NCBI GenBank assembly: GCA_963576725.1
Contig: OY755244.1
Location: forward strand, 34,878,446 to 34,942,445
DNA length: 64,000 nt
Source of the DNA: Azorinus chamasolen
Lineage: Eukaryota; Mollusca; Bivalvia; Cardiida; Solecurtidae
Reading direction: 5' to 3'
Shown here: positions 3,863-63,845 of the stretch, piece after piece
Layout: each line of letters opens with the position of its first letter
Position numbering within the stretch: the first letter of the stretch is position 1
Translations under genes and position numbers: made by a program
The notes under the pieces: generated by a model
What the model saw: the letters and a program-made list of their open reading frames with translations, nothing else
Database searches by the model: none
What the model was told of the DNA's origin: nothing

Positions 3863-4773
3863 CGAAGAATAGTGGAGCTATCCTACTCGCCCTGGCGTAG
3901 ATGTCAGTGTCGGCGCAGCGTCCACGTCACACCTTGGTTAAGGTTTTTGTTAAAGTCCACTTTTTGCCTCTACCCTTTGGAATAAAGCTTTCAATCTTGG
4001 AAGACTTGTTCACCACCACAAGCTTCATCTGTAGACAGGAGTGCATAACTCTGTCAATCATTTTGACAGAATTATGGCACTTTTTAACTTAGAATTTTTG
4101 GGTAAGGTTTTTGTTAAAGTCCACTTTTTGCCTCTAACCTTTAGAATAAAGTGTTGCAACTTGGAACACTTGTTCACCACTATCTCCATCTGTAGGCAAG
4201 AGTACATAACTCTGTCAAGCATTTTGACAGAATCATGACCATTTTTAACTTAGAACTTTTGGTTAAGGTTTTTGTTAAAGTCCACTTATTTACCTAACCC
4301 TTTGAGATTAAAAGCTTTGAGATTTGAATCACTTGTTTACCACCACCAGCTTCATAATTATGTAGGCAAGAGTACATTACTCTTGTCAAGGATTTTGACA
4401 GAATTATGGCCCTTTTTAACTTATAAATTTTGGTTAAGGTTTTTGGTAAAGTCCACTGATTTACTTAACCCTTTGAGATAAAGCTTTGAAACTTGGAACA
4501 CTTGTTCACCATCACATGCTTCATCTGTAGGCAATAGTACATTACTCTGTCAAGCATTTTAACAGGAATTATTGGCCTTTTTTGCGTAAGTTTTTCTCAT
4601 TCATTAAAAAGTTCAAAGAGATCCTACATCCTGAATACTATTAAATATATTTTACTGAGACTTTGATTACTTGCTTCTAGTATCATTGGACACTATTTTA
4701 GTCCACTATCAAGCATTTTTACACTAACAATTCTGAGAATAGTCGAGCGCACTGTCCTGTGACAGCTCTTGTT
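3863..4773 (+). repeat. Tandem-repeat module ending CTCTTGTT
   Basis: About four diverged units of ~175 bp, each with TTAAGGTTTTTGTTAAAGTC, CTTTGAGAT or similar, ACTTGTTCACCACC, TCATCTGTAGGCAAGAG and TTTTGACAGAATTATGG. The 5' end is GTGGAGCTATCCTACTCGCC followed by a CG-richer stretch. The 3' end is a stem-loop CTGTC-CTGT-GACAG abutting CTCTTGTT. The small ORFs here are just the repeat read in successive units. Preceded at 3828-3860 by the decayed 3' end of a similar module (GGTGAGCGATACAGGGC). Confidence 0.65.
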
Positions 4774-4774
4774 T

Positions 4775-5224
4775 GTGTCACCTGCCGAGAGGCAGTGTGT
4801 CCCTTAGGGATCACTTTTCCGTCGTCTTGTCTGTCTGTCTGTCTGTCTGACAGACTGTCTGTCCTTCACACTTTCCTTTTTTGGCTGTCATTTCTAAACT
4901 GATCATTAAAGAGCTTTTAAATTTCACATGAGTTTTGTGTCTTCCTCTCATTGAGGACCATTGATGTAACTAAGGTCTATCACTCTGAATGCAATAATTT
5001 TATGAGTTTTTCCCCTTTGTTCACACTTTCTTTTTTTGGGCTGTCATTTCTAAACGAATCATTATAGAGCTTTCAAATTTCATATGTGCCTTCCTCTCAT
5101 TGAGGACCATTGGTGTAACTAAGGTCCATCACTCTGCATTCAATACTTTGTAAGTTATTCCCCTTTGTTCTGATTTCACTCCAGCATATTAACAGTTTTT
5201 GTGTCAGCTGCGAGCAGGTGACAC
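4775..5224. repeat. Two-unit repeat with terminal inverted repeat
   Basis: Opens GTGTCACCTGC and closes GCAGGTGACAC. The inside has a (GTCT)n run at 4836-4862 and two ~150-bp units sharing TTTGGCTGTCATTTCTAAAC, CTTCCTCTCATTGAGGACCA and GTAACTAAGGTC. It starts immediately after the CTCTTGTT end of the preceding module. Unclassified non-autonomous element. Confidence 0.5.
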
Positions 5225-5789
5225 ATGTGTTCCTCTGAACACTGTTGTGTTACAATTGTTCCAAGAAGTTTGATAGAGGATAACTGCAAATTTATAATGA
5301 AACCTGCACGGTGGTTTCAGAGAAGAATATAATGTATTTTTATTATAGGCATATAATGGAAAATTAGCGTAGCCCCTGGTGACCACATGTTTAGCTCACC
5401 TGGCACAAAAAGTCATATGTGAGCTATTGGGATCACCCTGTGTCTGTTGTCCGTCATCACCAGTCATCCTTAGTCAACAATTTCTTAAAGGACAATTCGT
5501 CCTAAACCACTTACTAGTATTCACCAAATTTCACAGACATTATCTGCAGGTTACCCTGTATCAGATTTTCAAATGGTTCCAGTTCACCCCAGAAGTAGGT
5601 ATCACCTAGAAGCTAAAAATGGATTTTAAAGAGCAATTTCTTTAAAATGACATCTCCTAAACCAGGAAATGTATTTCCACAAAGTTTACAAGAATGGTCT
5701 TCAGGTGGCCCTCTATCAAAGCTATATAAATCATTCCGGTCCATTGCATAAGTACATGAGCTGAAAATAAATTTTCAACAAAAAAATAA

Positions 5790-6904: not shown

Positions 6905-6969
6905 CCTTGACTTTTCTCAGATTTAGATCATAATTATTCACGACTGCCATGTTGTTATATACCCGTGTA

Positions 6970-7319: not shown

Positions 7320-7339
7320 TCATGATCTTATCTACAAAT

Positions 7340-8150: not shown

Positions 8151-8152
8151 AG

Positions 8153-11302: not shown

Positions 11303-11652
11303 GATAATACTTGCTTGTTTCACTTAATACCAGACGTAGTCATGGAAAATGTGCTCTGATATTATATTGGAATTACTTAATTTTACAAAGGATTAATCAT
11401 TTGAATGTTATATCAAAATGGAGATTAATGTGAGAGGATTCTAAATATTGAGATTTAAAATAATGAAAGTTTAATATTGGTGACTTTATTCATAAAAATA
11501 ATTTTGGATCTACTGAAATAACAGGATAGTCTGTGTAGCCTACAATTGATGCCTGGATACACCATGCTGGGAATGTGCTAAACCAGCAGTAGTGAACCCA
11601 TTAACCTCTTACTGACCACTCTCAGAAAAAGGCACCTTGACACTAATTAACA

Positions 11653-13494
11653 ATGGAAGCCATAAATAGTTCCTCAAAACAGTTAACACTTATTCTGCAG
11701 CAAGAGCCATCAGAAGATACATATGCTTCTAAGCAGTCAACCATACTTCTACAAAATGCAGAGCTGAACCTGACAGAAAGTGGCTCTTTCTCAGGATTTT
11801 CATCCATATCCTCCCTGAACACAGAGCAGACAATTTGTGACAAGTTGTCTGGTGTATTCTTCAGTATGGACTGCACAGACAGACAGACTAAGGTTGTGTT
11901 TGCCCTGCAAACTGTCTTTGAGATATTTTTGAAACAATTTACAAGGTCATTTGAGGGTCAAGCAGACACAGACAAAAACAATTTCAAGCTGACAACTCAT
12001 GTACAGAAGAGAATTGTGTATATAGAGATTGATAGGACAGGTAGACAGCTAACGGTTTCTGGACCAGGACATGTTTTCTGGCGAGATCACCAATTCAAAC
12101 GCCTATCCCTAAATTTGTACAAAACCCTGATGAATGACTCATCAGAGGATGAGCTGGACTCCCGACCGCCTCAGACCAGCACACCAGTTGGAACCCACAC
12201 CATGCAGAGCTTGTTTTCAACCCAGGCCTCTCCTGTGCAGACAATACCATCCTTGAGGGGAGTTGAAGTTTCCGTCAGCCAACAAATCACCATGGTTACG
12301 GAAATGATAACCCACATCTCAACACAGATTGGTTCCCTACAAACCCAGCTGACCAGTCTGACCACAGAAGTCATTAGACTTCAGGAGAGTCAAACCACAG
12401 GAGAACAAGTCCCTAGCAGTGCAAGCACACTGCAGCCCAGCGAACAATCAATTATAGTGGTAGAAACATCAAAGACTGTAAATGAAAAAAAATCTCTTCC
12501 TACAAGACAGAAAAAGACAGCCTCGGCATCAAAGCCCAAATCCACAAAGCCGAAGCCTGCCAACCCCACCCCAAAGCCCAAATCCACAGAGCTCAAGACA
12601 ATAGTAAATAATATACAGAGACCAACACCTGCCAAAGAAAACAATAACAAAAGTTCCAGCCAAACAAGCACAAAAACTCTAATTATTGGCGACTCCACTC
12701 TTTCGGGCATAAATCGAAAAGGGCTTAATTCCAACGTTGAATGCATGACATTACCCGGAGCAACTGTAAATACCGTTCACAGGAAGATTCAAATATTTGA
12801 CCTGATGAAGTTTCAAAATGTGATCATGTATGTAGGTGGAAATGATGCCTCACAGAATATAGACTATGAACTATTTGAAGAACACTATGAGCAGTTGATT
12901 AAATATGTACAGAAGTGTAATCCATCAGCTAGTATATACGTCTGCAATTCCTGTCCACGGGGCGATGTTGACGTAAGTGACATCAATGAAATAATGCAGG
13001 GGCTGTGTGCCACACATGGAGTAAACCTCATTAACACTTACTCTGCCTACTACGACAAAAAGGGCCAACTAAGGAGTTACTTCTACAAACCCAGAAACCA
13101 GGTACACTTGTCTAGCTCGGGCACAAGACATCTCCTAGGAACCATCAATTACTCTGTAAACATTGTGGAAGACTTTGAACAATGTGCACGAGAGCCACCC
13201 AAAACACACCAATTCCAAAGGACCAACTACACACGATATCCTAGCACATACGTCAGACCACCTTGGGATAAACAGCACTATCGATCGTGGGGAATACAAA
13301 ACAATGGCAAACGACATGAATTCTACGACACCAGTGGTAATGAGCCTACCCAAGGTACTCGTAGATCTGGTGAAAGGTGTATGAAATGCGGCTTCAACAA
13401 CCATGAAACTCGTGACTGTCGTCACAAAAATCAGCTACAGTGTTACAATTGTAAGCTAATGGGCCATAAGGACTCTGATTGTTGGAATAAATAG
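11653..13494 (+). CDS. Non-LTR retrotransposon ORF1 (SGNH esterase-like, zinc-knuckle RNA-binding protein)
   Basis: A 613-residue protein opening ATGGAAGCC and ending at TAG 13492-13494. Residues ~205-248 look like a coiled coil (VTEMITHISTQIGSLQ). A Lys/Pro-rich linker follows (~278-330). Residues ~341-500 resemble an SGNH/GDSL hydrolase: GDS at 346-348, GGND at 395-398 and VHLSSSG at 484-490. Two perfect CX2CX4HX4C knuckles lie at 576-589 and 597-610. In CR1-type elements such an ORF1 coats the transcript and carries an esterase domain of uncertain role; that this one does the same is inference. The frame is fully intact. ORF2 follows in the same frame directly after the stop, so the two proteins are separated only by one UAG. 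The 5' end of the element is not visible; nothing promoter-like stands out in 11303-11652. Confidence 0.9.
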   Translation: MEAINSSSKQLTLILQQEPSEDTYASKQSTILLQNAELNLTESGSFSGFSSISSLNTEQTICDKLSGVFFSMDCTDRQTKVVFALQTVFEIFLKQFTRSFEGQADTDKNNFKLTTHVQKRIVYIEIDRTGRQLTVSGPGHVFWRDHQFKRLSLNLYKTLMNDSSEDELDSRPPQTSTPVGTHTMQSLFSTQASPVQTIPSLRGVEVSVSQQITMVTEMITHISTQIGSLQTQLTSLTTEVIRLQESQTTGEQVPSSASTLQPSEQSIIVVETSKTVNEKKSLPTRQKKTASASKPKSTKPKPANPTPKPKSTELKTIVNNIQRPTPAKENNNKSSSQTSTKTLIIGDSTLSGINRKGLNSNVECMTLPGATVNTVHRKIQIFDLMKFQNVIMYVGGNDASQNIDYELFEEHYEQLIKYVQKCNPSASIYVCNSCPRGDVDVSDINEIMQGLCATHGVNLINTYSAYYDKKGQLRSYFYKPRNQVHLSSSGTRHLLGTINYSVNIVEDFEQCAREPPKTHQFQRTNYTRYPSTYVRPPWDKQHYRSWGIQNNGKRHEFYDTSGNEPTQGTRRSGERCMKCGFNNHETRDCRHKNQLQCYNCKLMGHKDSDCWNK

Positions 13495-16400
13495 GTCATC
13501 GGCAAAGATGCCAACAATGTGATAGCATGTAACAGTGCACTCAGATTGACAAGTTCCTTAAAACACTTTTCTGAAACCTCAGTGTTTTCATTATTAGAAC
13601 ATATATGTGATCAGTGTAACGTATTGCCATGTAGTTGCAATGAAACGACTATTTCTGAGGATAATAAGAGTTTGGATAATCAAGTTTACAAACATGATAC
13701 ATTCATTGATGCAAATAATCACATGTCATCCACCAGTGATTTGCATGCATATGACACCTCAACCATATATGATTACATCTCTCCTGATGATAAGCGATAC
13801 ACTACTGCAAATGACAATTCTATCTATGCTTGTAATAATAACTCTCAACATATGCTAAATCTTAATCTGAATTCAAAAGGTTTTAAAATTGGACATATTA
13901 ACATACAAGGCATATCAAACAAAATAGATCAAGTAACGGTAATGCTAAACGAGAGCAACAATGATATTCATGTCTTAGGTATTAGTGAAACAAAACTGAA
14001 CAGCTCCCACCCAGATAACTATTTTCAAATAAATAACTTTCAAACAGTCTATAGAAAAGATAGGGTAATAACCAGAGATAGAAGTGAAGTTGGTGGTGGT
14101 ATACTGGTATATGTGAAGGATGGTATAAATTGTCATAGGAGAGTTGATTTAGAGTGCAATAGGCTTGAATGCTTATGGCTAGAAATATATCCTAACAATA
14201 GCAAAAGCTTTCTTGTAGGACATATGTATAGACACCCTAATGAAACGGTAAACTGGAATGAGGAATTTGAAACACAAATTGAAAAAGTATTAAAAGAACA
14301 AAAGGAATTTTACCTACTGGGAGATTTCAATCGTGATCTGCTTAACAAACAATTAAGCAAGGGCTGGCTTGACTTTATTGAACCATTTGGTCTCACCCAG
14401 CTAGTCAGCACACCAACACGAGTAACGAATCGCTCGGAAACACTCATTGACCATGCTTACTGTAGTGTTAAATCAAATATAAGTTCAGTCACGGTACCAA
14501 AGATAGGGCTTAGTGATCACTTCCCCATTTTTATTACAAGAAAACCAATTTCAACTGAACCCAAAAATTCTCATTACTGCATATCATATAGATCATTTAA
14601 ACATTTTAATGAAAATGCTTTCAAAACTGATCTTGAAACTGCTCCATGGGATATTGTTAAATTGTTCGAAGAGGATGTGAACGATGAAATGGACATATGG
14701 TCAGGTCTTTTCATTGATATAGTAAATAAGCACTTACCAATGAAGCAACATAGGGTTAAGCGCAAACAACAGCCAAAGTGGCTTACACCAGACATTATTG
14801 ATGCTATGAAAATGAGAGATAGATTCAAATCGATCAATAATGAGAGCCAATATAAATTATATCGTAATAAAGTTAGGGAACTAATAAAAAAGTCAAAAAA
14901 GGCACAGTATACTGCTATTCTAAATGAAAACAACAACAAACCCTCAAGTGTATGGAAACTGTTTAAAGAAGTTGGTGCCAGTAAGAAAAATGCATCTGCC
15001 ACAATATTCTCATTGAATGTGGATGGTCGGAGCATTGTAAACCCAGAAGAAATATCAATGGAATTTAACAAGTTTTTTGTAAACATTGCATCTCAAATTA
15101 AAGAACCAATCAAACCATCTAAATTCAAAAAACTCAAAGCATTTTGTGTGATGAGGGTCCCAAGTGATGCATATTTTAGTATTCCAGAAATAACAAAGAT
15201 TCAGGTTGAAAAATATTTAAAAACAATTGATGTTTCGAAAGCCACAGGATTGGACGAAATTGGGCCGAGATTGTTAAAAATAGCTGCACCCTACATATCT
15301 GGAAGTATAACATATATATGTAACAAGAGTATTAAAACTGGCATATTTCCAGACCAGTGGAAACAGGGTAAAGTAGTACCATTATTTAAAGCTGGTAATA
15401 AAAATGACCCAAGTAATTACAGACCAATATCAATTCTCCCAGTTTTATCCAAACTTTTAGAAAAACATGTTCATGATTCATTAATGGATTTCTTGATTAG
15501 GTTCAAATTGTTACACACAACACAATCTGGCTTCAGACCAGATCATTCATGTGAGACGGCCTTAACTTGTATGACTGATAAATGGCTAGAGGCTATCAAT
15601 AAAGGGGAAATAATAGGTGCTGTCATGGTAGATTTCAAAAAAGCATTTGACCTAGTAGACCATTCTATTCTGCTAAAAAAGCTATGTCACTATAAATTAA
15701 CAAATACATCAGTTAAATGGTTTTCATCATATTTACTAAACAGAAGTCAAAAAGTTACCTCTAATAACACTTTATCGACAGCTGAATATATAACTTCTGG
15801 CGTTCCTCAGGGCTCTATATTAGGACCACTTTTGTTTTTGCTCTTTATCAATGACTTACCTTTATATACAGACATGGTTAAAACTGATATGTATGCAGAT
15901 GATACAACACTATATGATATGAATAAATCACTGCCCTCTGTTAAAGAAAACCTTGAAACTGCATTAGTGAAACTATCCACTTGGTGCAATAAGAATGGAA
16001 TGGTTATAAATTCCTCTAAAACTAAGGTTATGTTAGTATCCACACATCAAAAGCAAACCCGAATGAATATAGATTGCATAGATCTAAAACTTGATGGTAA
16101 AATTTTAAATACAGTATCTAATGACAAAATTTTAGGTGTCCACATAGATAATAATTTAACCTGGTCTGTTCACATTGACAAAATTTCAAAGAAAATCTCA
16201 ACTAATCTATGGCTTCTTAACACCATAAAAGATTTCTTGTCTACAGAACATAGAGTGCAATTCTACAAAACATATATACAGCCTCATATAGACTACTGTA
16301 GTATTGTATGGGGAGGCACATCTCAAACAAATTTGCAAAGATTACATAATTTACAGAAACGAGCATGCAAAATAATTCTAGACTATAATTATACCGATAT

Positions 16401-16731
16401 AAACAAAAGTATGGAAGAGCTTAAAATTTTAAGTGTACACGAACGTATATTTTTGCGGAAAGCCAAATTTATGTACAATGTTTCAAAATCTAAGACGCCT
16501 AATTATATAAACGAATTATTTCACTTAAGGCCACACAATGATAATTTACCAATGCTTAGATCAATTACAAATACCGATTATATCCCACCCAAGCCCAATA
16601 AAGAAATCTTCAGGCAAAGTCTATCCTATTCAGGCTCCATTATTTGGAATTGTTTGCCAACACACTTAAAAACACTTGAAACAGTTAACAATTTTCACTG
16701 CAAATGTATACAGTGGATGAAATCTAAATGA
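13495..16731 (+). CDS. Non-LTR retrotransposon ORF2 (APE endonuclease plus reverse transcriptase)
   Basis: An uninterrupted frame from just after the ORF1 stop to TGA 16729-16731. The first ATG is at 13723, well before the first domain, so starts by reinitiation there or by UAG readthrough are both possible; no ATG lies between 13495 and 13722 in this frame. Counting from 13519 (about 1070 residues), the AP endonuclease covers ~121-340: GHINIQG (from 13891), SETKL (156-160), MYRHP, GDFN (268-271) and SDHFPI (332-337). The reverse transcriptase covers ~550-870: VVPLFKAG, NYRPISIL (633-640), GFRPDHS, VDFKKAFD (catalytic Asp 705), GVPQGSILGP (761-770) and YADD (792-795, codon at 15892). All key residues are present. 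No RNase H domain is evident. This pairs with ORF1 to nick DNA and prime reverse transcription on the target. CR1/L2-like by layout; the exact clade needs a tree. Confidence 0.93.
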   Translation, partial: VIGKDANNVIACNSALRLTSSLKHFSETSVFSLLEHICDQCNVLPCSCNETTISEDNKSLDNQVYKHDTFIDANNHMSSTSDLHAYDTSTIYDYISPDDKRYTTANDNSIYACNNNSQHMLNLNLNSKGFKIGHINIQGISNKIDQVTVMLNESNNDIHVLGISETKLNSSHPDNYFQINNFQTVYRKDRVITRDRSEVGGGILVYVKDGINCHRRVDLECNRLECLWLEIYPNNSKSFLVGHMYRHPNETVNWNEEFETQIEKVLKEQKEFYLLGDFNRDLLNKQLSKGWLDFIEPFGLTQLVSTPTRVTNRSETLIDHAYCSVKSNISSVTVPKIGLSDHFPIFITRKPISTEPKNSHYCISYRSFKHFNENAFKTDLETAPWDIVKLFEEDVNDEMDIWSGLFIDIVNKHLPMKQHRVKRKQQPKWLTPDIIDAMKMRDRFKSINNESQYKLYRNKVRELIKKSKKAQYTAILNENNNKPSSVWKLFKEVGASKKNASATIFSLNVDGRSIVNPEEISMEFNKFFVNIASQIKEPIKPSKFKKLKAFCVMRVPSDAYFSIPEITKIQVEKYLKTIDVSKATGLDEIGPRLLKIAAPYISGSITYICNKSIKTGIFPDQWKQGKVVPLFKAGNKNDPSNYRPISILPVLSKLLEKHVHDSLMDFLIRFKLLHTTQSGFRPDHSCETALTCMTDKWLEAINKGEIIGAVMVDFKKAFDLVDHSILLKKLCHYKLTNTSVKWFSSYLLNRSQKVTSNNTLSTAEYITSGVPQGSILGPLLFLLFINDLPLYTDMVKTDMYADDTTLYDMNKSLPSVKENLETALVKLSTWCNKNGMVINSSKTKVMLVSTHQKQTRMNIDCIDLKLDGKILNTVSNDKILGVHIDNNLTWSVHIDKISKKISTNLWLLNTIKDFLSTEHRVQFYKTYIQPHIDYCSIVWGGTSQTNLQRLHNLQKRACKIILDYNYTDINKSMEELKILSVHERIFLRKAKFMYNVSKSKTPNYINELFHLRPHNDNLPMLRSITNTDYIPPKPNKEIFRQSLSYSGSIIWNCLPTHLKTLETVNNFHCKCIQWMKSK

Positions 16732-26319: not shown

Positions 26320-26332
26320 ATATTGACTTTTT

Positions 26333-28157
26333 ATGCCGCCAAAGCCTAGTTATGCCCCCAAAGCTAGGCTTTGGCGGCATATAGTGATCGCACCGTGCGT
26401 GTGTGGGTGGGTGTGTGGGTGGGTGGGTGTGTGGGTGGGTGGGTGTGTGGGTGGGTGGGTGTGTGTACCTTTTGTCCGGAGTATATTTCCTTTGTCACAT
26501 CAGCTACGGATACCAAATTTGGTGTGTCAGTTCATCTTGGGATGGGGGAGTGTCGCGTACCATTTTCATGTCACTGTGACCTTGACCTTGACCTTTGACC
26601 TTGATTTTACAAAAAGCTTGTCCGGAGCATATCTCCTTTACCTTACCAGCTACAGATTCCAAATTTGGTGTGTGAGTTCATCTTAGGATGGCGGAGTGTC
26701 GCGTACCATTTCCAGGTCCCTGTGACCTTGACCTTGACCTTTGACCTCGATTTTAAAAAAAGCTTATGCCTTACCAGCTACAAAAAGCTTGTCCGGAGTA
26801 TATCTCCTATACCTTACCAGCTAAGGATTCCAAATTTGGTGTGTTAGTTCATCTTGGGATGGAGGAGTGTCGCGTACCATTTTCAGATCACTGTGACCTT
26901 GACCATGACCTTTGACCGATTTTACAAAAAGCTTGTCCGGAGCATATCTCCTTTACCTTACCAGCTACAGATTCCAAATTTGGTGTGTGAGTTCATCTTG
27001 GGATGGCGGAGTGTCGCGTACCATTTCCAGGTCACTGTGACCTTGACCTTGACCTTTGACCTCGATTTTAAAAACCGCTTATACCTTACCAGCTACAAAA
27101 AGCTTGTCCGGAGTATATCTCCTATTCCTTACCAGCTAAGGATTCCAAATTTGGTGTGTGAGTTCATATTTGGATGGAGGAGTGTCGCATACCATTTTCA
27201 GATCACTGTGACCTTGACCATGACCTTTGACCGATTTTACAAAAAGCTTGTCCGGAGCATATCTCCTTTACCTTACCAGCTACAGATTCCAAATTTGGTG
27301 TGTGAGTTCATCTTGGGATGGCGGAATGTCATGTACCATTTCCAGGTCACTATGACCTTAACCTTGACCTTGACCTTGACCGATTTTACAAAAAGCTTGT
27401 CCAGAGCATATCTCCTATACCTTACCAGATACGGATTCCAAATTTGGTTTGTGAGATCACCTTCAGATGGCGGAGTGTCGCGTACCATTTTCAGGTCACT
27501 GTGACCTTGACCTTGACCTTCGACCTCGATTTTACAAAAAAGGTTGTCCAGAGAATATCTCTTATACCTTACCAGCTACGGATTCCAAATTTAATGTGTG
27601 AGTTTATCTTGGGATGGCGGTGTGTCGCGTACCATTTTCAGGTCACTGTGACCTTGACCTTTGACCTAGATTTTACACAAAGCTTGTCTGGAGCATTTCT
27701 CCTATACCTTACCAGCTACGGAATCCAAATTTGGTTTGTGAGTTCATCTTGGGATAGGGGAGAGTCATGTACCATTTTCAGATCACTGACCTTGACCTTC
27801 ACCTTTGACCTCAATTTTACAGTCCGGAGCATATCTCCTATATCTTACCAGATACAAAAAGCTTGTCCAGAGCATATCTCCTATACCTTAAACGTTGACA
27901 ATCAACCCAGGGTCCTTTTTAACGTTGAGAATGACTTAGGGTCCTTTTTAACTAAGTTTTGACGCTTGGCTCTTTTCTTAGCTATCATAATCGTCAAAGG
28001 TTCTGTTTCTAAGGTTAAGAACTGACTCCTGTGTCATTTTTAACAGCATCAAAATTTCATGTTACACCTGCATTACATTGTATTGTTTTTCCACCAAAAT
28101 GCATTTCGGTGTCAAACACTTTGGGGGCATTTGTCACCCGTGACGACCCTCTTGTTT
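26333..28157 (+). repeat. Array module of ~150-bp units rich in TGACCT half-sites
   Basis: Opens with the inverted pair ATGCCGCCAAAGCCTAG / CTAGGCTTTGGCGGCAT, then (GGGTGGGTGTGT)n at 26398-26465, then about nine units. Each unit reads AAAAAGCTTGTCCGGAGCAT, ACCTTACCAGCTAC, CCAAATTTGGTGTGTGAGTT, GGATGGCGGAGTGTCGCGTA and GTGACCTTGACC, with TTTGACC in most. It closes with TTGGGGGCATTT, a GTCAC-CC-GTGAC stem and CTCTTGTT (28149-28156). The units read through as apparent 200-residue frames because the unit length keeps frame; they are not genes. Family resemblance to 40726-42271. Confidence 0.8.
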
Positions 28158-35784: not shown

Positions 35785-35940
35785 ATATATAAACTGTAGA
35801 ATCATATCTAACAGAGCTCCTGCATGTACAGGAGCCATCGGATCTGTGTCTATTCTGTTTGCAAAGGCATAGAAAGGGGTATTGATGGAGGAAAAGGTTT
35901 AAAAAAAACATTGTGAACAGGGATGGGGATAATTTTTATA

Positions 35941-40725: not shown

Positions 40726-42271
40726 AACCCGTGGAAAACCCGGTTATTGAAATGGTAATGTACGGCCGGCGGGCGGGCGGACGGCTGCCAATCTTGCCCG
40801 GACGATAACTCCTCTATGGCTCATGCCATTGGATTGAAACTTCATACATAGAAAGATCATGATAAGAGGAAGTGTCATGCACAAAGTCCATAACTCTTGC
40901 TTCACTAATATTGGAGTTATGCCCCTTTGAACTTAGAAATGTGTCAGTCCGTCCGTGCTTCCGTCCGGTCTTGTCTGGGCTCTAACTTAGAACTCCATGG
41001 ATGGATTGTGAAATCACTTGGCATTAATGTTCCTTTAGAAGGTATGGCATATCGCATGAAAAAACCATGTATATAGCTGAAAGGTCAAGGTCATACTTAG
41101 AGGTCAAAGGTCAAAATCATGTATATTTTTAACCGGATTAACAGATTTTGCTTGTCCTGAGCATATCTTCTACACTACTTTGGCTAGGATCACCAAATAT
41201 GGTGTGTTAGTACATCTTGGGATGGCGGAGTGTCACATACTATTTATAGGTCAATGTGACCTTGACCTTTGGCTTCATTTACAATAAAAACTTGTCTGGA
41301 GCATATCTCCTACACTATTTCAGCTGGGATAAAAAAAATATGGTGTGTGAGTTCATCTTGGGATGGCGGAGTGTCATGTACTATTTTTTGGTCAATGTGA
41401 CCTTGACCTTGAACTTTGACCCCATTTACAAAAAAGCTTGTCTGGAACATATCTCCTACACTACTTCAGCTAGGATACCAAGTATGGTGTGTGAGTACAT
41501 CTTGGGAGGGCGGAGTGTCACGTGTACTATTTATAGGTCAATGTGACCTTGACCTTGGGCTTCATTTACAAGAAAAACTTATCCGGAGCATACCTCCTAT
41601 ATGGAATCAGCTAGGATCACCAAATATGGTGTGCGAGTTCATCTTGGGATGGCGGAGTGTCACATATTATTTTTAGGTCAATGTGACCTTGACCTTGAAC
41701 TTTGACCTCATTTGCAAAAAAAGGCTTGTCCGGAACATATCTCCTACCCTACTTCAGCTAGGATCACCAAATATGGTGTGTGAGTACATCTTGGGATGGC
41801 GGAGTGTCGCATACTATTTATAGGTCAGTGTGACCTTGACCTTGGGCTTCATTTACAAAAAAAACTTGTCCGGAGAATACCTCCTATACGGAGTCAGCTA
41901 GGAACACCAAATATGGTGTGCGAGTTCATCTTTGGTTGGTGGATGTCGCATACTATTTTTAGGTAAATGTGACCTTGACCTTGACCTTTGACCTCAGTTA
42001 CAAAAAAAGCTTGTCCGCAGCATATCTCCTACACTTCTTCTGCTAGGATCACCAAATATGGTGTGTGAGTTCGTCTTGCGATCACATACTAGTTATAGCT
42101 CAATGTGACCATGACCTTGACCTTTGACCTCATTTTAAAAAAGGCTTGTCCGGAAATATATCTCCTACACTACTTCAGCCAGGATCACCAAATATGGTGT
42201 GTGAGTACATCTCGGGATAGCAGAGTGTCGCATACTATTTATAGGTCAGTGTGACCATGACCTTGACCAAA
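40726..42271 (+). repeat. Array module of ~150-bp units rich in TGACCT half-sites
   Basis: Begins AAACCCGTGGAAAACCCGG with a GC-rich CGGCGGGCGGGCGGACGG stretch (the strongest local CpG content). About eight units follow with CTTGTCCGGAGCATATCTCC, CTACACTACTTCAGCTAGG, ATCACCAAATATGGTGTGTG, GGATGGCGGAGTGTC and CAATGTGACCTTGACC. Related unit to 26333-28157 but distinctly diverged. The 3' end is cut off by a family B fragment, so no CTCTTGTT. Confidence 0.8.
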
Positions 42272-52625: not shown

Positions 52626-53503
52626 TTAACCCTTTCACTTCATTACTACATCTTTCTACGCCTTTGAAAATAGAGTAGACAAAGATCAGACAGCTTCTAC
52701 AGGGACCATCTGATCTTGGTCTACTCTGCCAACAGCGTAGACCAAGATCAGATGTCTCCTGTAGAAGTCGTCAGCTGATCAAATTCTACTCATTAGCTCC
52801 ACTTTTTCAAAAAGAGGAGCTATTGTCATGACCCTCTCGTCTGCGTCGGCGTTGGTTAACCTTTTTGTTAAGGTCCTTTTCTCAGAAACCATCAAAGATA
52901 TTTGGTTCATATTTGGTATGTATGTTTACTATCACAAGGGGAACCCATTTCACAAGGGTAGGTAACTCTAAAATTATTTTTGCCATAGTTATGCCCCTTT
53001 TTCGACTTAGAATTTTCATTGTTGGTTAAGTTTTATGTTCAGGTCCTTGTCTCAGAAACTGTCAAAGATATTTGGTTCATCTTTGGTATACATATTAACT
53101 ATCACAAGGGGAACCCATTTCACAAGGGTAGGTAACCCTAAAATTAATTTTGCCATAGTTATGCCCCTGTTTCGACTTACAATTTCGTTGTTGGTTAAGT
53201 TTTATGTTCAGGTCCATGTCTCAGAAACTGTCCAAGATATTTGGTTCATCTTTGGTAGACATATTAACTAAAACAAGGGGGACTCACTTCACAAGGGTAG
53301 GTAACCCTAAAATTAATTTTGTTGTTGTTATCTCCCCTTTCTTACTTAGACTTCCACTACACTATCCAGCACTAAAGAAAGTGGAGCGCACTGTCTGCGG
53401 ACAGCTCTTGTTTTACTTATGATATAATATGGATATTATTCTTCAGTTTCTACAGTGACCAAAAAATCCCATGTCCATGTCCCGTTATATTTATTGAAAT
53501 TAA
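52626..53503 (+). mobile_element. Family C element split by an array module
   Basis: TTAACCCTTTCACTTCATTA, then a doubled core (AGATCAGACAGCTTCTACAG and AGATCAGATGTCTCCTGTAG), CAAATTCTACTC, the insertion, then CTTATGATATAATATGGATA and CATGTCCCGTTATATTTATT. The C right tip is missing; the next element's TTAA follows. Confidence 0.7.
52795..53412 (+). repeat. Array module, three ~165-bp units, inserted between T residues of a C element
   Basis: Starts TAGCTCCACTTTTTCAAAAA with GAGGAGCTATTGTCATGACC, so the first 32 bp form a hairpin. Three units share CAAAGATATTTGGTTCAT, AAGGGGAACCCATTTCAC, AAGGGTAGGTAACCCTAAAA and ATTTTGCCATAGTTATGCCC. The 3' end is CTGTC-TGCG-GACAG (53391-53404) then CTCTTGTT. 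The C host continues with TT-ACTTATGATA. Confidence 0.8.
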
Positions 53504-57280: not shown

Positions 57281-57572
57281 GTACTGATCACAGGTGCTAG
57301 GCGTGTGGCCATTTCACAAATACTGCTTATAAATACCTTCAAATACGTTTAGACATCATAACTTGACATTATAAAAATAAGAAAAAAAAATGATTTTTTT
57401 TTTTTTTCGTATAGTATATTACTATATAAAGGTATGTAACTAAATGGTCCAAAGTGGCAGAAAAAATGCACCAACTACATTCCGCGTCTTGTTACGACGT
57501 CAATTTCCGCTCGATTTCAATCAAATATGAGTCAATGCATGCAGAAATGTCCAGTCTTTCAAATACACACCA

Positions 57573-57857
57573 TTGATTGCCGATCATAAGCCGAAAAATT
57601 ACTGTTTTGAGACGATAAACTCCAGCTTAGATTTAGTCGACCGAGTCACTACCGACACATACTTGCACATTTTCACCACTGATGACATCGAAAGTCACAC
57701 TAGATCTCAAAATATGGTCCGTTTTCCACTCTCATTCAATAAAACTAACATAACCATTCAACTTACTGTCGATGTCAACCTCAAAGTTACTACCGGTTCT
57801 ACGAAACTGAAGAGTTTTCGAAACAACCCGCGACTGTCAACATTCGGCCAGCCATGA
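57573..57857 (+). CDS. 94-codon frame in the left arm, uncertain coding status
   Basis: Opens on TTG, not ATG, and ends TGA 57855-57857. The inverted copy at 58572-58856 has the same frame. Between the two there are five base changes, four of which alter the peptide (F/Y, S/A, L/M, Q/H), so there is no sign of purifying selection since the arms separated. The peptide (FTTDDIESHT, VDVNLKVTTG) matches no domain I know. Could be 5' untranslated or promoter sequence that happens to be open. Confidence 0.25.
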   Translation: MIADHKPKNYCFETINSSLDLVDRVTTDTYLHIFTTDDIESHTRSQNMVRFPLSFNKTNITIQLTVDVNLKVTTGSTKLKSFRNNPRLSTFGQP

Positions 57858-57932
57858 TTTTTCGTGACCCGGAAATGCTTGAAGCGAAGAAGCGACTGGT
57901 GCCCGGCAGACCATTTGACTACTATAAAGCAG
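57854..57932 (+). other. Exon-like segment: ATG, 26 codons, splice donor
   Basis: ATG 57854-57856 (context GCCATGA) starts a peptide MIFRDPEMLEAKKRLVPGRP followed by FDYYKA, and the frame reaches AAAGCAG|GTAACA, a plausible 5' splice site at 57932/57933. The arms' homology stops about 20 bp past this donor. In the right arm a run of five T is four T, which shifts the frame. Looks like a promoter plus first coding exon; the gene is not identified. Confidence 0.35.
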
Positions 57933-58212
57933 GTAACAAGTGCCCTGTAAACTGTTGATTATGTTCGCCCAAAATTTAGATTTTCTATTCTAATAAGACT
58001 GAAAAAAAAAGAAAGAACTAGCTCTATTTCAAATTTAATGACAGCCTTCATTTCATATATATATTAGGAACAATGACTATAGTTACTTGGTAATTATACT
58101 GATTATTTTATAATCGTTTGCTTTCTAATATTTGTGTTAATTTATTTTTCATATATAGTGTCCAGCACATGACTGAAAAATGTATACGTCGACTGCATTT
58201 TATTTTCCAGTT

Positions 58213-58439
58213 AACCTTTCCCTGTTCAATAATCATGTAAGAAAAAGTAACACCATGAATATTTATTAGATTAATTTTTATCATTTTCAAGGGCATGTTT
58301 GCTTCGAGGAATGGTATAGAATTATATCTATATATTATGGCACAAATAGAGTAGATCCTGGTCTTCTATGAGCTATCTGATTTGGGTCTATACTGTTTTC
58401 AAATGCGTGAAAAGGTGTTTATAGGAGGGAAAGGGTTAA
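58213..58439 (-). mobile_element. TTAA element in the spacer of the long-inverted-repeat element
   Basis: TTAACCTTTCCCTGTTCAAT, ATCATGTAAGAAAAAGTAAC, GGCACAAATAGAGTAGATCC, shortened core CTTCTATGAGCTATCTGATT, end GGAGGGAAAGGGTTAA. C-like left body with an A-like right tip. Confidence 0.75.
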
Positions 58440-58571
58440 CAGGGTGTTTTATACAGAAACCGGGCACCAGTAATCATGTTTACAGGGCACTTGTTACCTG
58501 CTTCAAAGTAGTCAAATGGTCTGCCGGGCACCAGTTGCTTCTTCGCTTCAAGCATTTCCGGGTCACGAAAA

Positions 58572-58856
58572 TCATGGCTGGCCGAATGTTGACAGCCGCG
58601 GGTTGTTTCGAAAACTCTTCAGTTTCGTAGAACCGGTAGTAACTTTGAGGTTGACATCGACAGTAAGTTGAATGGTTATGTTAGTTTTATTGAATGAGAG
58701 TGGAAAACGGACCATATTATGAGATCTAGTGTGACTTTCGATGTCATCAGTGGTGAAAATGTGCATGTATGTGTCGGTAGTGACTCGGTCGACTAAATCT
58801 AAGCTGGCGTTTATCGTCTCATAACAGTAATTTTTCGGCTTATGATCGGCAATCAA
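58572..58856 (-). CDS. 94-codon frame in the right arm, inverted copy
   Basis: Mirror of the frame at 57573-57857. The ATG exon that overlaps its stop is disrupted here by loss of one T. On the opposite strand, ATGGCTGGCCGAATGTTGAC opens a short frame ending TAG, present in both arms, so strand and reading direction of any real gene remain open. Confidence 0.25.
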   Translation of the reverse strand: MIADHKPKNYCYETINASLDLVDRVTTDTYMHIFTTDDIESHTRSHNMVRFPLSFNKTNITIQLTVDVNLKVTTGSTKLKSFRNNPRLSTFGQP

Positions 58857-59116
58857 TGGTGTGTATTTGAAAGACTGGACATTTCTGCGTGCATTGATTC
58901 ATATTTGATTAAAATCGAGCGGAAATTGACGTCGTAACAAGACGCGGAATGTAGTTGGTGCATTTTTTCTGCCACTTTGGACCATTATACTATACGAAAA
59001 AAAAAAAAAATCTTTTTTTTTTTCTTATTTTTATAATGTCAAGTTATGATGTCTAAACGTATTTGAAGGTATTTATAAGCAGTATTTGTGAAATGGCCAC
59101 ATGCCTAGCACCTGTG

Positions 59117-59393: not shown

Positions 59394-61706
59394 TTTAGCT
59401 CACCAGAGCACAAAGTGCTCAGGGTGAGCTTTTGTGATCGCCTGATGTCCGTCGGCGTGCGTCGTCCGTCGTCAGTCGTCAACAATTTGAACCTTTAAAA
59501 ATCTTCTCCTCTGAATCTACAGGGTTCTCAGCTTTCATCTTTGGCACATAGTATCATCTTTAGGTCCTCTACAAAAGTTATATAAATTATGGCCCTGGGG
59601 TCAAAATTGGCCCCACCCCAGGGGTTCCATGTTTTCAATAGAAACATATAGTAAAACTTTGAAAATCTTCTCCTCTGAAACCAGAAGGCTCTCAACTTTC
59701 ATATTTGGCACATAGCATCATGTTCAGGTCCTCTACAAAAGTTATATAAATTATGCCCCTGGGGTCAAAATTGGCCCCGCCCCAGGGGTGGGCAGTTTTC
59801 AATAGAAACAAATAGTGAAATCTTTGAAAATCTTCTCCTCTGAAACTGGAAGGCTCTCAGCTTTCATATTTGGCACATAGCATCATGTTCAGGTCCACTA
59901 CAAAAGTTATATAAATTATGGCCCTAGGGTCAAAATTGGCCCCGCCCCAGGGTAGGCAGTTTTCAATAGAAACAAATAGTGAAATCTTTGAAAATCTTCT
60001 TCTCTGAAACTGGAAGGCTCTCAGCTTGTATATTTGGCACATAGCATCATGTTCAGGTGCTCTAAAAATGTTATATAAATTATGGCCCTAGGGTCAAAAT
60101 TGGCCCTGCCCCAGGGTTGGGCAGTTTTCAATAGAAACAAATAGTGAAATCTTTGAAAATCTTCTTCTCTGAAACTGGAAGGCTCTCAGCTTTCATATTT
60201 GGCACATAGCTCCATGTTCAGGTCCACTACAAAAGTTATATAAATTATGGCCCTAGGGTCAAAATTGGCCCCGCCCCAGGGGTGGGCAGTTTTTAATAGA
60301 AACAAATAGTGAAATCTTTGAAAATCTTCTCCTCTGAAACTGGAAGGCTCTCAGCTTTCATATTTGGCACATAGCATTATGTACAGGTCCTCTACAAAAG
60401 TTATATAAATTATGGCCCGGGGGTCAAAATTGGCCCCGCCCTAGGGGGGGGGGGGGGGGGGCAGTTTTCAGTAGAAACAAATAGTGAAATCTTTGAAAAT
60501 CTTCTTCTCTGAAACTGGAAGGCTCTCAGCTTTCATATTTGGCACAGAGCATCATGTTCAGGTCCACTACAAAAGTTATATAAATTATGCCCCTGGGGTC
60601 AAAATTGGCCCCGCCCCAGGGGTGGGCAGTTTTCAATAGAAACAAATAGTGAAATCTTTGAAATTCTTCTTCTCTGAAACTGGAAGGCTCTCAGCTTTCA
60701 TATTTGGCACATAGCATTATGTACAGGTCCTCTACAAAAGTTATATAAATTATGGCCCGGGGGTCAAAATTGGCCCTGCCCCAGGGGCGGGCAGTTTTCA
60801 ATAGAAACAAATAGTGAAATCTTTGAAAATCTTCTCCTCTGAGACTGGAAGGCTCTTAACCTTCATATTTGGCACAGAGCATCATGTTTAGGTCATCTAC
60901 AAAAATTATATAAATTATGGCCCTATGGTCAAAATTGGCCCCACCCCAGGGTGGGCAGTTTTCAGTAGAAACAAATAGTGAACTCTTTGAAAATCTTCTT
61001 CTCTGAAACTGGAAGGCTCTCAGCTTTCATATTTGGCACAGAGCATCATGTTCAGGTCCACTACAAAAGTTATATAAATTATGGCCCTAGGGTCAAAATT
61101 GGCCCCACCCCAGGGGTGGGCAGTTTTCAATAGAAACAAATAGTGAAATCTTTGAAATTCTTCTTCTCTGAAACTGGAATTCTCTCAGCTTTCATATTTG
61201 GCACATAGCATCATGTTCAGGTCCTCTACAAAAGTTATATAAATTATGGCCCTGGGGTCAAAATTAGCCCGCTCCAGGGGTGGGCAGTTTTCAATAGAAA
61301 CAAATAGTGAAATATTTGAATATCTTCTTCTCTGAAACTGGGTGGTTCTTAGCCTTCATACTTTGCATGTATCATCATGTTCAGGTCCTCTGCAAAAGGT
61401 AAATAAATTATGCCCCAGGGGTAAATATTGGCCCCGCCCCAGGGGAGGGTAGTTTTCAGTAGAAACAAATAGTGAAATCTTTGAAAATCTTCTTCTCTGA
61501 AACTGGAAGGTTCTCAGCTTTCATATTTGGCACATAGCACCATGTCCAGGTCCTCTACAAAAGTTATATAAATTGTGCCTCTTGGGTCAAAATTAGCCCA
61601 GCCCCAGGGCAGGCTAGTTTTCTAAAGAAACATATAGTTAAAACTTTGAAAAGCTTCTCCTCTGATTGTCTGGTGAGCGCTTCAGGGCCATTCTGGCCCT
61701 CTTGTT
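59394..61706 (+). repeat. Array module, ~sixteen 138-bp units, TAGCTCACC to CTCTTGTT
   Basis: 5' end TTAGCTCACCAGAGCAC with TGCTCAGGGTGAGCTTT forms a hairpin; then (CGTCGT)n-like TCCGTCGGCGTGCGTCGTCC. Units: GAAATCTTTGAAAATCTTCT, CTGAAACTGGAAGGCTCTCA, GCTTTCATATTTGGCACATA, GTCCTCTACAAAAGTTATAT, AAATTATGGCCCTGGGGTCA and CCCCGCCCCAGGGGTGGGCA. 3' end GGTGAGCGCTTCAGGGCCA-TTC-TGGCCCT with CTCTTGTT. A 19-base G run interrupts one unit near 60446. Inserted within the 42-bp satellite. Confidence 0.88.
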
Positions 61707-62190
61707 TACAGTACTGATACCATGATTCATAACACAGCCCTGCCTTTCCTACAGTACTGATACCATGATTCACAGATATAGCCCTGCCTTCCTACAGTAC
61801 TGATACCATGATTCACAACACAGCCCTGCATTTCTTACAGTACTGATACCTTGATTTTCAACACAGCCCTACCTTTCTTACAATATTGATTCACAACACA
61901 ACCCTGCCTTTCTTACAGTACTGATACCATGATTCACAACACAGCCCTGCCTTCCTACAGTACTGATACCATGATTCACAACACAGCCCTACCTTTCTTA
62001 CAATATTGATTCACAACACAACCCTGCCTTTCTTACAGTACTGATACCATGATTCACAACACAGCCCTGCCTTCCTACAGTACTGATACCATGATTCACA
62101 ACACAGTCCTGCATTTCTTACAGTACTGATACCTTGATTTTCAATACAGCCCTACCTTTCTTACAATATTGATTCACAACACAGCCCTGC
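61707..62190 (+). repeat. Satellite block between the two array modules
   Basis: Eleven or so 42-bp units including two copies of the TTGATTTTCAACACAG variant and a locally duplicated block (61880-61980 matches 61980-62080). Confidence 0.87.
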
Positions 62191-63845
62191 CTTTTTAGCT
62201 CACCAGAGCACAAAGTGCTCAGGGTGAGCTTTTGTGATTGCCTGATGTCCGTCGTCCGTCAGCGTGCGTCGTGCGTCGTCAGTCGTCAACAATTTGAACC
62301 TTTAAAAATCTTCTCCTCTGAATCTACAGGATTCTCAGCTTTCACCTTTGGCACATAGTATCATCTTTAGGTCCTCTACAAAAGTTATATAAATTATGGC
62401 CCTGGGGTCAAAATTGGCCCGCCCCAAGGATTCCTTGTTTTCAATAGAAACATATAGTAAAACTTTGAAAATCTTCTCCTCTGAAACTGGAAGGCTCTCA
62501 ACTTTCATATTTGGCACAGAGCATCATGTTCAGGTCCTCTACAAAGTTATATAAATTATGGCCCTGGGGTCAAAATTGGCCCCGCCCCAGGGGTGGGCAG
62601 TTTTCAATAGAAACAAATAGTGAAATCTTTGAAAATCTTCTCCTCTGAAACTGGAAGGCTCGCAGCTTTCATATTTGGCACATAGCATCTTGTTCAGGTC
62701 CTCTACAAAATTTATATAAATTATGTCCCTGGGGTCAAAGTTAACCCCGCCCCAGGGGTGGGCAGTTTTCAATAGAAACAAATAGTGAAATCTTTGAAAA
62801 TCTTCTCCTGAAACTGGAAGGCTCTCAGCTTTCAGATCTGGCACCGAGCATCATGTTCAGGTCCTCTACAAAAGTTATATAAATTATGGCCCTGGGGTCA
62901 AAATTGGCCCTGCCCCAGGGGTTGGGCAGTTTTCAATAGAAAAAAATTAGTGAAATCTTTGAAAATCTTCTTCTCTAAAACTGGAAGGCTCTCAGCTTTC
63001 ATATTTGGCACATAGCATCTTGTTTAGGTCCTCTACAAAAGTTATATAAATTATGGCCCTGGGGTCAAAATTAACCCCGCCCCAGGGGTGGGCAGTTTTC
63101 AATAGAAACAAATAATGAAATCTTTGAAAATCTTCTTCTCTGAAACTGGACGGCTCTCAACTTTCATATTTGGCACAGAGCATCATGTTCAGGTCCTCTA
63201 CAAAAGTTATATGAATTATGGCCCTGGGGTCAAAATTGGCCCGCCCCAGGGGTTGGGCAGTTTGCAATAGAAACAAATAGTGAAATCTTTGAAAATCTTC
63301 TCCTCTTAAACTGGAAGGCTCTCAGCTTTCATATTTGGCACAGAGCATCATGTTCAGGTCCTCTACAAAAGTGATATAAATTATGGCCCTGGGGTCAAAA
63401 TTGGCCCCGCCTCAGGGGTTGAGCAGTTTTCAATAGAAACAAATAGTGGAATCTTTTAAAATCTTTTCCTCTGAAACTGGAAGGATCTCAGCTTTCATAT
63501 TTGGCACAGAGCATCATGTTCAGGTCCGCTACAAAATTGATATAAATTATGGCCCTGGGCTCAAAATTGGCCCCGCCTCAGGAGTGGGCAGTTTTCAATA
63601 GAAACAAATAGTGAAATCTTTGAATATCTTCTTCTCTGAAACTGGGTGGTTCTCAGCTTTCATATTTTGCACATAGCATCATTTTCAGGTGCTCTACAAA
63701 AGTTATATAAATTATTGCCCTGGGGTCAAAATTGGCCCCGCCCCAGGGGTAGCCAGTTTTCAACAGAAACATATAGTGAAAACTTTGAATATCTTCTCCT
63801 CTGATTGTCTGGTGAGCGCTTCAGGGCCATTCTGGCCCTCTTGTT
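62191..63845 (+). repeat. Second copy of the 138-bp-unit array module
   Basis: Same 5' hairpin and 3' stem-loop as the first module and the same junctions to the satellite on both sides, but about twelve units instead of sixteen. Ends CTCTTGTT at 63838-63845. Minus-strand frames (for example at 62539-62844) are the unit translated. Confidence 0.88.

What the first reader, a model, noticed from the sequence alone, without database searches (positions are those of the whole stretch)
3863..63845. Unrelated tandem-array modules end in the same stem-loop plus CTCTTGTT
Modules with completely different internal units terminate identically: CTGTC-CTGT-GACAG-CTCTTGTT (4752-4773), GTCAC-CC-GTGAC then CTCTTGTT (28133-28156), CCG-TCTTG-CGG then CTCTTGTT (37384-37395), CTGTC-TGCG-GACAG-CTCTTGTT (53391-53412) and AGGGCCA-TTC-TGGCCCT overlapping CTCTTGTT (61684-61706, 63823-63845). 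Several also start with a hairpin at TAGCTCACC or TAGCTCC. The 52795-53412 copy is inserted cleanly between T residues of a family C element with no target duplication. A 3' hairpin, internal tandem repeats, no TIRs and T-T insertion are the features of Helentron-derived non-autonomous elements. So these may be one replication system amplifying many unrelated satellites.
Basis: partly seen in the sequence, partly recalled or inferred. Interest (0 to 1): 0.78.

Follow-up and report, generated by a model that had tools for sequence, protein, structure and literature searches.

The report
Helentron-borne satellite elements sharing one tail
The repeat modules in this probable clam-like genome are parasitic rolling-circle DNA elements that carry satellite repeats between short matching ends, and the genome also holds gene-bearing Helentrons with closely similar tails, one of which carries a satellite unit related to one in the window.

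Summary
Six of nine CTCTTGTT in the window end repeat modules, directly after a hairpin. With 5' complementary repeats, GTCY-type microsatellites, ~140-170 bp arrays, T^T insertion and no target duplication, this is the published anatomy of Helentron-associated elements (HINEs) in oyster. The window's own 1.72-Gb assembly has 3,485 CTGTC-loop-GACAG-CTCTTGTT ends against 1 for the reversed pattern and 109 Helitron_like_N matches; of six loci read, two hold Rep, PIF1 and endonuclease in one frame with the Helentron GSPH motif. Copy boundaries fix two 3' ends: CCCTTGTT|T and TTCTAG|T. The second Helentron carries, after its stop codon, DNA 71% identical over 220 columns to module E2's array. No Helentron ending in exactly CTCTTGTT was proven. 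So these are HINEs; 'one system' holds at superfamily level, probably with several Helentron families behind it. The kind is known; new are the tail-satellite link and an apparent common terminus YYCTWG|T.

The parts
3858..4773 (+). E1: HINE; degenerate 5' subTIR/IR, ~161-bp array 3934-4583, stem CTGTC-CTGT-GACAG, end CTCTTGTT 4766-4773
   Evidence: relative L015:123-1513 in the same assembly has an intact 5' end with a perfect 11-bp subTIR
26332..28156 (+). E2: HINE; nested 5' palindrome, subTIR 26352-26363 / 28119-28130 (12 bp), GTGG microsatellite, ~144-bp array 26472-27821, stem GTCAC-CC-GTGAC 28133-28144, CTCTTGTT 28149-28156
   Evidence: array unit matches the tail of Helentron L042
35937..37395 (+). 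E3: HINE; subTIR 35937-35950 / 37356-37369 (14 bp), GTCY microsatellite 35975-36056, ~147-170-bp array 36328-37187, imperfect stem GCCCCG-TCTTG-CGGTGC 37372-37388, CTCTTGTT 37388-37395
52795..53412 (+). E4: HINE; subTIR 52796-52805 / 53378-53387 (10 bp), 5' hairpin, 170-bp array 52851-53321, stem CTGTC-TGCG-GACAG 53391-53404, CTCTTGTT 53405-53412
   Evidence: empty sites in paralogous repeat copies
59397..61706 (+). E5: HINE in a 43-bp minisatellite; subTIR 59398-59407 / 61669-61678 (10 bp), 5' hairpin, GTC-rich microsatellite, ~165-bp array from 59493, stem AGGGCCA-TTC-TGGCCCT 61684-61700 overlapping CTCTTGTT 61699-61706
62197..63845 (+). E6: second copy of the E5 family; subTIR 62198-62207 / 63808-63817 (10 bp), stem 63823-63839, CTCTTGTT 63838-63845
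   Evidence: left flank 272 of 281 columns identical to that of E5, right flank 121 of 175, element ends 189 of 207 and 179 of 201
3821..3853 (+). E0: apparent remnant of another HINE 3' end (GGGTGAGCG...AGGGC/GGCCC) directly left of E1
   Evidence: the reading is inferred, no 5' end was found
41150..42266 (+). E7: array homologous to the E2 array, same orientation, without HINE ends that I could recognise

Best explanation
The modules are HINEs, non-autonomous Helentrons, of a mollusc-like (probably bivalve) genome. Their ends are a 5' subTIR with a nearby complementary repeat and, at the 3' side, a subTIR copy, a short hairpin and a terminal CTCTTG|TT. These are what a Helentron Rep-helicase-endonuclease presumably recognises: it would nick, copy one strand by rolling circle, stop at the 3' hairpin and terminus, and join the product between T residues of a new site without target duplication. 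The interior is free to vary, so mostly unrelated arrays ride on equivalent ends; at least one array type resembles the non-coding 3' tail of a coding Helentron and is tandemly repeated in some related copies. Shown: anatomy, empty sites, genome-wide copy number, Helentron genes, two Helentron 3' boundaries, the tail-array homology. Inferred: which protein moves which HINE, the enzymology, and how arrays grow.
For: Stem and octamer beyond chance. SubTIRs in 5 of 6 modules, 5' complementary hairpins and GTCY-type microsatellites, as the oyster paper defines HINEs. T^T insertion without duplication for E4 and E5. 3,485 stem-octamer ends against 1 control. Seven further ends in the 200-kb sample were searched for a 5' subTIR partner and 3 of 7 have one. 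109 Helitron_like_N matches, none in 14 control genomes; L042 and L044 encode Rep, PIF1 and an endonuclease domain over the Pfam cut-offs, with RGSPH motifs. L045 3' boundary: 35 of 41 non-self pieces end at query 600-606 and CCCTTGTT ends at 602; 6 of 6 copies read end CCCTTGTT|T. L042 3' boundary: TTCTAG ends at query 483, 29 of 32 pieces of a flanking repeat start at 484, and 4 of 7 element places end at 485-486.
Against: No Helentron with exactly CTCTTGTT was proven; the CTCTTGTT near L043 belongs to a separate HINE and the one 3.2 kb beyond the L044 frame is unresolved. No 5' end of a coding Helentron was reached. 14 of 20 sampled CTCTTGTT have no stem of 5 bp or more, and 4 of 7 sampled ends had no subTIR partner found. 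E1 has no perfect subTIR. E1, E2 and E3 gave no spanning empty site. The stem before CCCTTGTT in the L045 family is only 4 bp with a loop of 11-13 bases in most copies read. The endonuclease matches of L045 are below the Pfam cut-offs and L043 shows none.
Confidence: 0.92

Rival explanations
1. Canonical Helitrons (CTRR end, A^T insertion, no subTIR) rather than Helentrons.
For: The L042 family ends in CTAG followed by T; oyster CTAG elements often carry subTIRs, 257 of 751.
Against: SubTIRs and 5' complementary repeats, T^T insertion, CTTG rather than CTRR in the window, and the RGSPH motif and endonuclease domain of L042 and L044.
Confidence: 0.04
2. MITEs or other TIR DNA transposons with palindromic ends that happen to contain tandem repeats.
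For: The window holds many ~230-bp dispersed repeats, some palindromic, and one of them hosts E4.
Against: Asymmetric ends and no target duplication for E4 and E5.
Confidence: 0.02
3. Chance or satellite-internal octamers mistaken for element ends.
For: 3 of 9 window octamers are not element ends; GACAGCTCTTGTT also sits in a 47-bp satellite.
Against: 3,485 against 1 with the full stem; stem association; empty sites of E4 and E5 place the boundary at the octamer.
Confidence: 0.01
4. One single Helentron family mobilises all these modules (strict 'one system').
For: Common terminus and hairpin across different subTIRs and arrays.
Against: Several distinct Helentron loci coexist, with differing termini in the two solved cases.
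Confidence: 0.12

Closest known systems
Cg_HINE elements of Crassostrea gigas (Vojvoda Zeljko et al. 2020, PMC7492417; Results and part 1 of Discussion read)
   Same: 5' subTIR, complementary IR, GTCY microsatellite, 140-180-bp arrays, 3' subTIR, 3' palindrome, TT insertion without TSD, unrelated arrays on equivalent ends.
   Different: Its main text prints neither CTTGTT nor TTGTT (figures and supplements not seen), and its authors could not relate Cg_HINEs to the 10 autonomous elements they found. Here the 3' boundaries of coding Helentrons are fixed and one Helentron tail shares an array unit.
HINE / DINE-1 and Helentrons of mite, Culex and Drosophila (Thomas et al. 2014, PMC4067079; parts 1-2 of 3 of Results read)
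   Same: SubTIRs of 11-15 bp, 3' palindrome, T-rich target, Rep-helicase-endonuclease with S between G and P in motif 2.
   Different: HINEs there are described as deletion derivatives sharing 84-99.9% (mite) identity with a partner; here arrays dominate and no window family was matched to a Helentron at that level.
CTAG elements with subTIRs of C. gigas (PMC7992393; passages only) and canonical Helitrons
   Same: Hairpin before a CT-G terminus; L042 joins a CTAG|T end with a Helentron-type protein, a mix like the intermediates suggested there.
   Different: Window elements end CTTG|TT and insert at T^T, not at AT.
Pearl, DTC84 and MgE bivalve elements
   Same: Pearl: up to six ~160-bp central repeats between HINE-like ends; DTC84 and MgE of comparable architecture, as stated in PMC7492417.
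   Different: The Donax paper is not held, the others were not looked up; no sequences compared.

Membership tests
HINE (non-autonomous Helentron) | Subterminal inverted repeats near both ends | tested here: met
   E2 12 bp, E3 14 bp, E4, E5 and E6 10 bp, all perfect; E1 degenerate, a relative intact
HINE (non-autonomous Helentron) | Short palindrome close to the 3' end | tested here: met
   Perfect in 5 of 6, 5 of 6 pairs in E3; free folding prefers it plainly only in E2, E5 and E6
HINE (non-autonomous Helentron) | Insertion in T-rich sequence between Ts, no target duplication | tested here: met
   E4 and E5 against paralogous empty sites; E1-E3 had none in the window
HINE (non-autonomous Helentron) | 5' IR complementary to the subTIR plus microsatellite (bivalve HINEs) | tested here: met
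   Both plain in E2 (GTGG), E5 and E6 (GTC-rich); E4 has the IR and a weak microsatellite, E3 the GTCY microsatellite and an imperfect IR, E1 degenerate
HINE (non-autonomous Helentron) | No coding capacity of its own | tested here: met
   Of 16 frames of 110 aa or more, four overlap modules (119-218 aa); none of the four has a Pfam family. Six others were scanned, six not at all
HINE (non-autonomous Helentron) | Autonomous Helentron partner with near-identical ends | tested here: inconclusive
   Helentrons are present; two solved 3' ends are one or two letters from CTCTTG; no window family was matched to a Helentron over 60 bp
Helentron (L042, L044) | Rep + PIF1 helicase + endonuclease, GSPH in Rep motif 2 | tested here: met
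   All three domains in one frame, QHRGSPHVH and QQRGSPHAH
Helentron (L045) | Rep + PIF1 helicase + endonuclease, GSPH in Rep motif 2 | tested here: inconclusive
   Domains lie in two adjacent frames, endonuclease below the Pfam cut-offs, motif pattern not found
Canonical Helitron | CTRR 3' end, A^T target, no subTIR | tested here: not met
   Window elements end CTTG, E4 and E5 insert T^T, five of six have subTIRs

The most novel reading that the evidence does not exclude
In this genome satellite monomers arise in the 3' non-coding tail of coding Helentrons, between stop codon and 3' subTIR. Loss of the genes and tandem growth of that tail unit make HINEs. The Helentron proteins read only a loose terminal code (subTIR, any short hairpin, YYCTWG|T), so a few Helentrons cross-mobilise many otherwise unrelated satellite carriers, and CTCTTG|TT is a one-letter shift of the Helitron CTAG|T terminus.
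Probability: 0.35. Interest if true: 0.72.

Novelty: new member of a known kind. Interest (0 to 1): 0.5.

Why it matters
Dispersed satellite arrays of bivalves are known to ride on HINEs, but their gene-bearing partners and the origin of the monomers were left open in the oyster work. Here are Helentrons in the same assembly, two exact 3' termini, and a satellite-like unit already present in a Helentron tail and repeated in tandem in some related copies. That gives a concrete test of how satellites are born and spread, and the shared terminus is a handle for annotating such elements.

Tried and rejected
Chance octamers: rejected. The raw count of GACAGCTCTTGTT (5,007, reversed control 45) was not used alone, because L017-L021 show that a 47-bp satellite contributes. 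A first look for an autonomous CTCTTGTT end took the octamers downstream of L043 and L044 as candidates. The L043 one belongs to a 1.1-kb HINE with its own perfect 11-bp subTIR and was rejected; the L044 one has no subTIR partner in the stretch held and stays open. A resemblance of the L045 tail to the E3 unit is weak (score 25, 3 of 200 shuffles as good): dropped. A de novo subTIR-plus-stem scan of the window was swamped by palindromic repeats. Viral and prokaryote collections gave 12 and 1 pattern hits; the 12 viral sites were read and look to me like phage coding sequence, the 1 prokaryote hit was not inspected. Helentron motif scan of viral contigs: 0. Rfam: 0. Literature (open-access text only): CTCTTGTT with helitron gave 1 paper, judged from its listing; CTCTTGTT with satellite and bivalve gave 2, one opened and found to be a PCR primer, one seen only in the listing; GGCCTCTTGTT gave 9, all judged from the listing. 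From memory, oyster elements end similarly; this was not tested.

Genome searches answered: 56, 67, 94, 103, 107, 123. Busy and not answered: 4, 5, 10, 22, 24, 31, 34, 37, 40, 45, 51, 54, 57, 60, 63, 65, 74, 75, 77, 79, 81, 84, 87, 89, 92, 97, 98, 99, 101, 105, 109, 110, 112, 114, 115, 118, 121, 124, 125, 126, 130, 132, 133, 136. Boundary searches with the L044 and L049 tails and a count of the E5-type end were therefore never obtained.
Full report
What was checked. I call the modules E1 (3858-4773), E2 (26332-28156), E3 (35937-37395), E4 (52795-53412), E5 (59397-61706) and E6 (62197-63845); key coordinates were re-read. The octamer CTCTTGTT is modestly over-represented, 9 against 3.45 expected. 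Its association with a hairpin is clear: 5 of 9 against 27 of 459 permuted octamers (p=1.1e-4); hairpin plus inverted repeat 4 of 9 against 6 of 459 (p=1.3e-5); inverted repeat alone 5 of 9 against 146 of 459, not significant. E5 and E6 are one family in the same 43-bp minisatellite. Their left flanks agree in 272 of 281 columns and their right flanks in 121 of 175, so they may be a local duplication rather than two insertions.

Anatomy. A module reads, 5' to 3': T-run; subTIR with a complementary repeat; a GC-rich or GTCY/GTGG microsatellite-like stretch; an array of 140-170 bp units; a copy of the subTIR in inverse orientation; a short hairpin; CTCTTG then TT. The 5' hairpin is plain in E2, E4, E5 and E6, imperfect in E3 and degenerate in E1. 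The subTIR pairs are perfect over 12 (E2), 14 (E3) and 10 bp (E4, E5, E6); E1 is degenerate but its relative L015 is intact. The 3' hairpin arms differ between families (CTGTC/GACAG, GTCAC/GTGAC, GCCCCG/CGGTGC with one mismatch, AGGGCCA/TGGCCCT) while pairing is kept, which points to structure rather than letters; yet free folding prefers the named hairpin plainly only in E2, E5 and E6. Units: E2/E7 and E5/E6 are homologous; E1/E4 (31 against a shuffle maximum of 30), E4/E5 (26 against 24), E4/E6, and on opposite strands E2/E3 (34 against 23) and E7/E3 (32 against 24) exceed 200 shuffles; the other pairs do not in the forward sense (the reverse alignments were not printed, and I read the shared block as AAGGTCAAGGTCA). 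So the arrays are mostly unrelated, not completely so. Four frames of 119-218 aa overlap modules; none has a Pfam family.

Insertion. Joined flanks of E4 match 13 uninterrupted paralogous places; the 8 alignments printed put the insertion between Ts with no duplication. E5 sits between Ts of the 43-bp unit (4 alignments printed). E1, E2 and E3 have no spanning hit in the window. The terminal TT cannot be assigned to element or target, an ambiguity Thomas et al. also report.

The assembly. The window is G000:C10:34878446-34942445 of a 1.72-Gb, 137-contig assembly. The window's RT frame is 73% identical to a protein labelled as from a Sedimenticola MAG, and other close hits carry names of Thiodiazotropha and Lucinoma-symbiont MAGs. 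I read these as host contamination in bivalve-symbiont assemblies, hence a bivalve host; that is inference. CTGTCN{3,6}GACAGCTCTTGTT occurs 1,701+1,784 times against 1+0 for the reversed pattern. In 200 kb of further sequence 20 CTCTTGTT were found, 6 with a stem of 5 bp or more against 124 of 1,554 permutations (p=0.004); with at least 3 G or C in the arm, 4 of 20 against 28 of 1,554 (p=0.0005). Of the 6, five look to me like HINE ends, one with an arm not seen in the window (GTACCG-TATG-CGGTAC); the sixth, TTTCC/GGAAA, may be chance. Two more without a 5-bp stem look like a further family by reading (CTCGTCTGAT subTIR, 4-bp CCGC-AA-GCGG or CGCC-GCA-GGCG). One search covered 67 sites for a subTIR partner: 58 lie in the overlapping 47-bp-satellite loci L017-L021 and have none; both GACAG sites of L015 and L016 have one; of 7 chosen sample sites 3 have one (L024:9020, L027:1467, L032:8882) and 4 do not. 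L014 gave no site in that script.

Helentron genes. PF14214 gives 109 matches here and none in 14 control genomes. I read six loci in part. L042 (C14) and L044 (C15) hold Rep, PIF1 and endonuclease domains in one frame with QHRGSPHVH and QQRGSPHAH, the serine that Thomas et al. give as diagnostic of Helentrons. L045 (C12) holds Rep in one frame and PIF1 plus a sub-threshold endonuclease in the next; L043 (C16) shows Rep and PIF1 only; L048 and L049 show RGSPH motifs and were not scanned with Pfam. At the DNA level these loci share only pieces of 49-300 bases that I take to be dispersed repeats.

Two Helentron 3' ends. L045: with its tail as query, 40 of 1,578 candidates were scored, giving 42 pieces; 35 of 41 non-self pieces end at query 600-606. 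Two of the other six belong to places whose second piece ends at 602-603, and four run on to 613-632. CCCTTGTT ends at 602. Six copies read at the end (L045 and L051-L055, that is 5 of 39 other places) all have GGGGGACTCATGTCTTGCAT...ATGCCCTTGTT followed by T; the stem there is GCAT/ATGC, 4 bp, with a loop of 11-13 bases. 31 of the places share only the last ~210-250 bases (query starts 356-396) and so look non-autonomous; only the ends of two of them were read. The C4 and C7 copies lie 2.7-3.6 kb from Rep matches on the same strand. The 15-mer of the L045 end with any base at octamer position two occurs 41 times (control 5): A 20, C 18, T 3; these were not shown to be element ends. L042: TTCTAG ends at query 483. 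Of 1,864 candidates 40 were scored: seven other element places end at 468, 485, 508, 486, 486, 485 and 496; 32 pieces of a neighbouring repeat begin at 476-485, 29 of them at exactly 484. Two shorter copies, L032:5468 and L040, share the hairpin and TTCTAG followed by T. Thus CTCTTG|TT (window), CCCTTG|TT (L045) and TTCTAG|T (L042) fit YYCTWG|T; CTAG is the usual Helitron end. The E2 and L042 ends also align by eye (GGGGGCATTTGTCAC-CC-GTGAC and GGGGGTATTCATCAC-CTTTA-GTGAT), the stem differing by a paired change. This common code is my inference from three termini.

Tail and satellite. The ~480 bases between the L042 stop and its 3' end contain DNA matching the E2 array, 71% over 220 columns, E=3e-23 in the sequence held, same orientation. 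Local score 121 against a shuffle maximum of 27; E1, E3, E4 and E5 units score within shuffles. At two of the seven other places (C1:51944280-51945096 and C5:93591304-93591720) overlapping matches of the same part show it repeated in tandem. The direction, tail to satellite or satellite captured by a Helentron, is open. For L045 no window unit matches convincingly.

How it probably works. Helentron protein in trans recognises subTIR, hairpin and terminus, copies one strand by rolling circle and inserts between Ts; the interior is neutral cargo, so arrays of unrelated units persist on equivalent ends. Shown: ends, target, copy number, genes, boundaries. Inferred: trans-mobilisation, replication mode, array growth. 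Against a strict single system: several Helentron loci without shared DNA, differing termini, no exact CTCTTGTT Helentron.

Known or new. The anatomy is that of Cg_HINE (PMC7492417) and HINE/Helentron (PMC4067079). The oyster authors could not link their HINEs to ten autonomous elements, and oyster CTAG elements with subTIRs were called possible intermediates. That satellites can form by expansion of short arrays inside transposons, Helitrons and Helentrons being a common example, is already said in a 2025 review (PMC12628747, passages), and the 2021 oyster satellitome paper discusses such arrays too (PMC8268682, passages). I saw no mention of a shared CTCTTGTT end in the texts searched within or in the searches; figures and supplements were not seen. 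Hence a new member of a known kind, with a useful link to its probable partners.

Noticed in passing
window 57289-59116: A 1.8-kb element with inverted ends CACAGGTGCTAGG...CCTAGCACCTGTG sits in the 43-bp minisatellite between two copies of GTACTGAT, an 8-bp duplication as hAT elements make (family name recalled).
   Followed up: partly
own assembly, contig C7: 39 of 109 Helitron_like_N matches (counted by hand) lie on C7, which is 5.7% of the assembly; binomial P about 4e-21 if pieces were independent, which some are not.
   Followed up: partly
L017-L021 (C1 about 0.787-0.789 Mb): A 47-bp satellite contains GACAGCTCTTGTT without the HINE stem.
   Followed up: no
window 3821-3860: E1 begins directly after the 3' hairpin of what looks like another HINE remnant, possibly an insertion into the T-run of that element's end.
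   Followed up: partly
window 11647-16728: Two-frame non-LTR retrotransposon: ORF1 with a GDSL-like domain, ORF2 with endonuclease and reverse transcriptase; its nearest named relatives come from bivalve-symbiont MAGs, suggesting host DNA in those assemblies.
   Followed up: partly
window arrays 26472-27821, 36328-37187, 41150-42266: AAGGTCAAGGTCA-type direct repeats recur in array units, on opposite strands in E2 and E3; they look like nuclear-receptor half-sites (recalled).
   Followed up: no
L029:7251: A further hairpin end TTTTTG-TAT-CAAAAA...TTCTAG|T, a possible other CTAG-type family.
   Followed up: no
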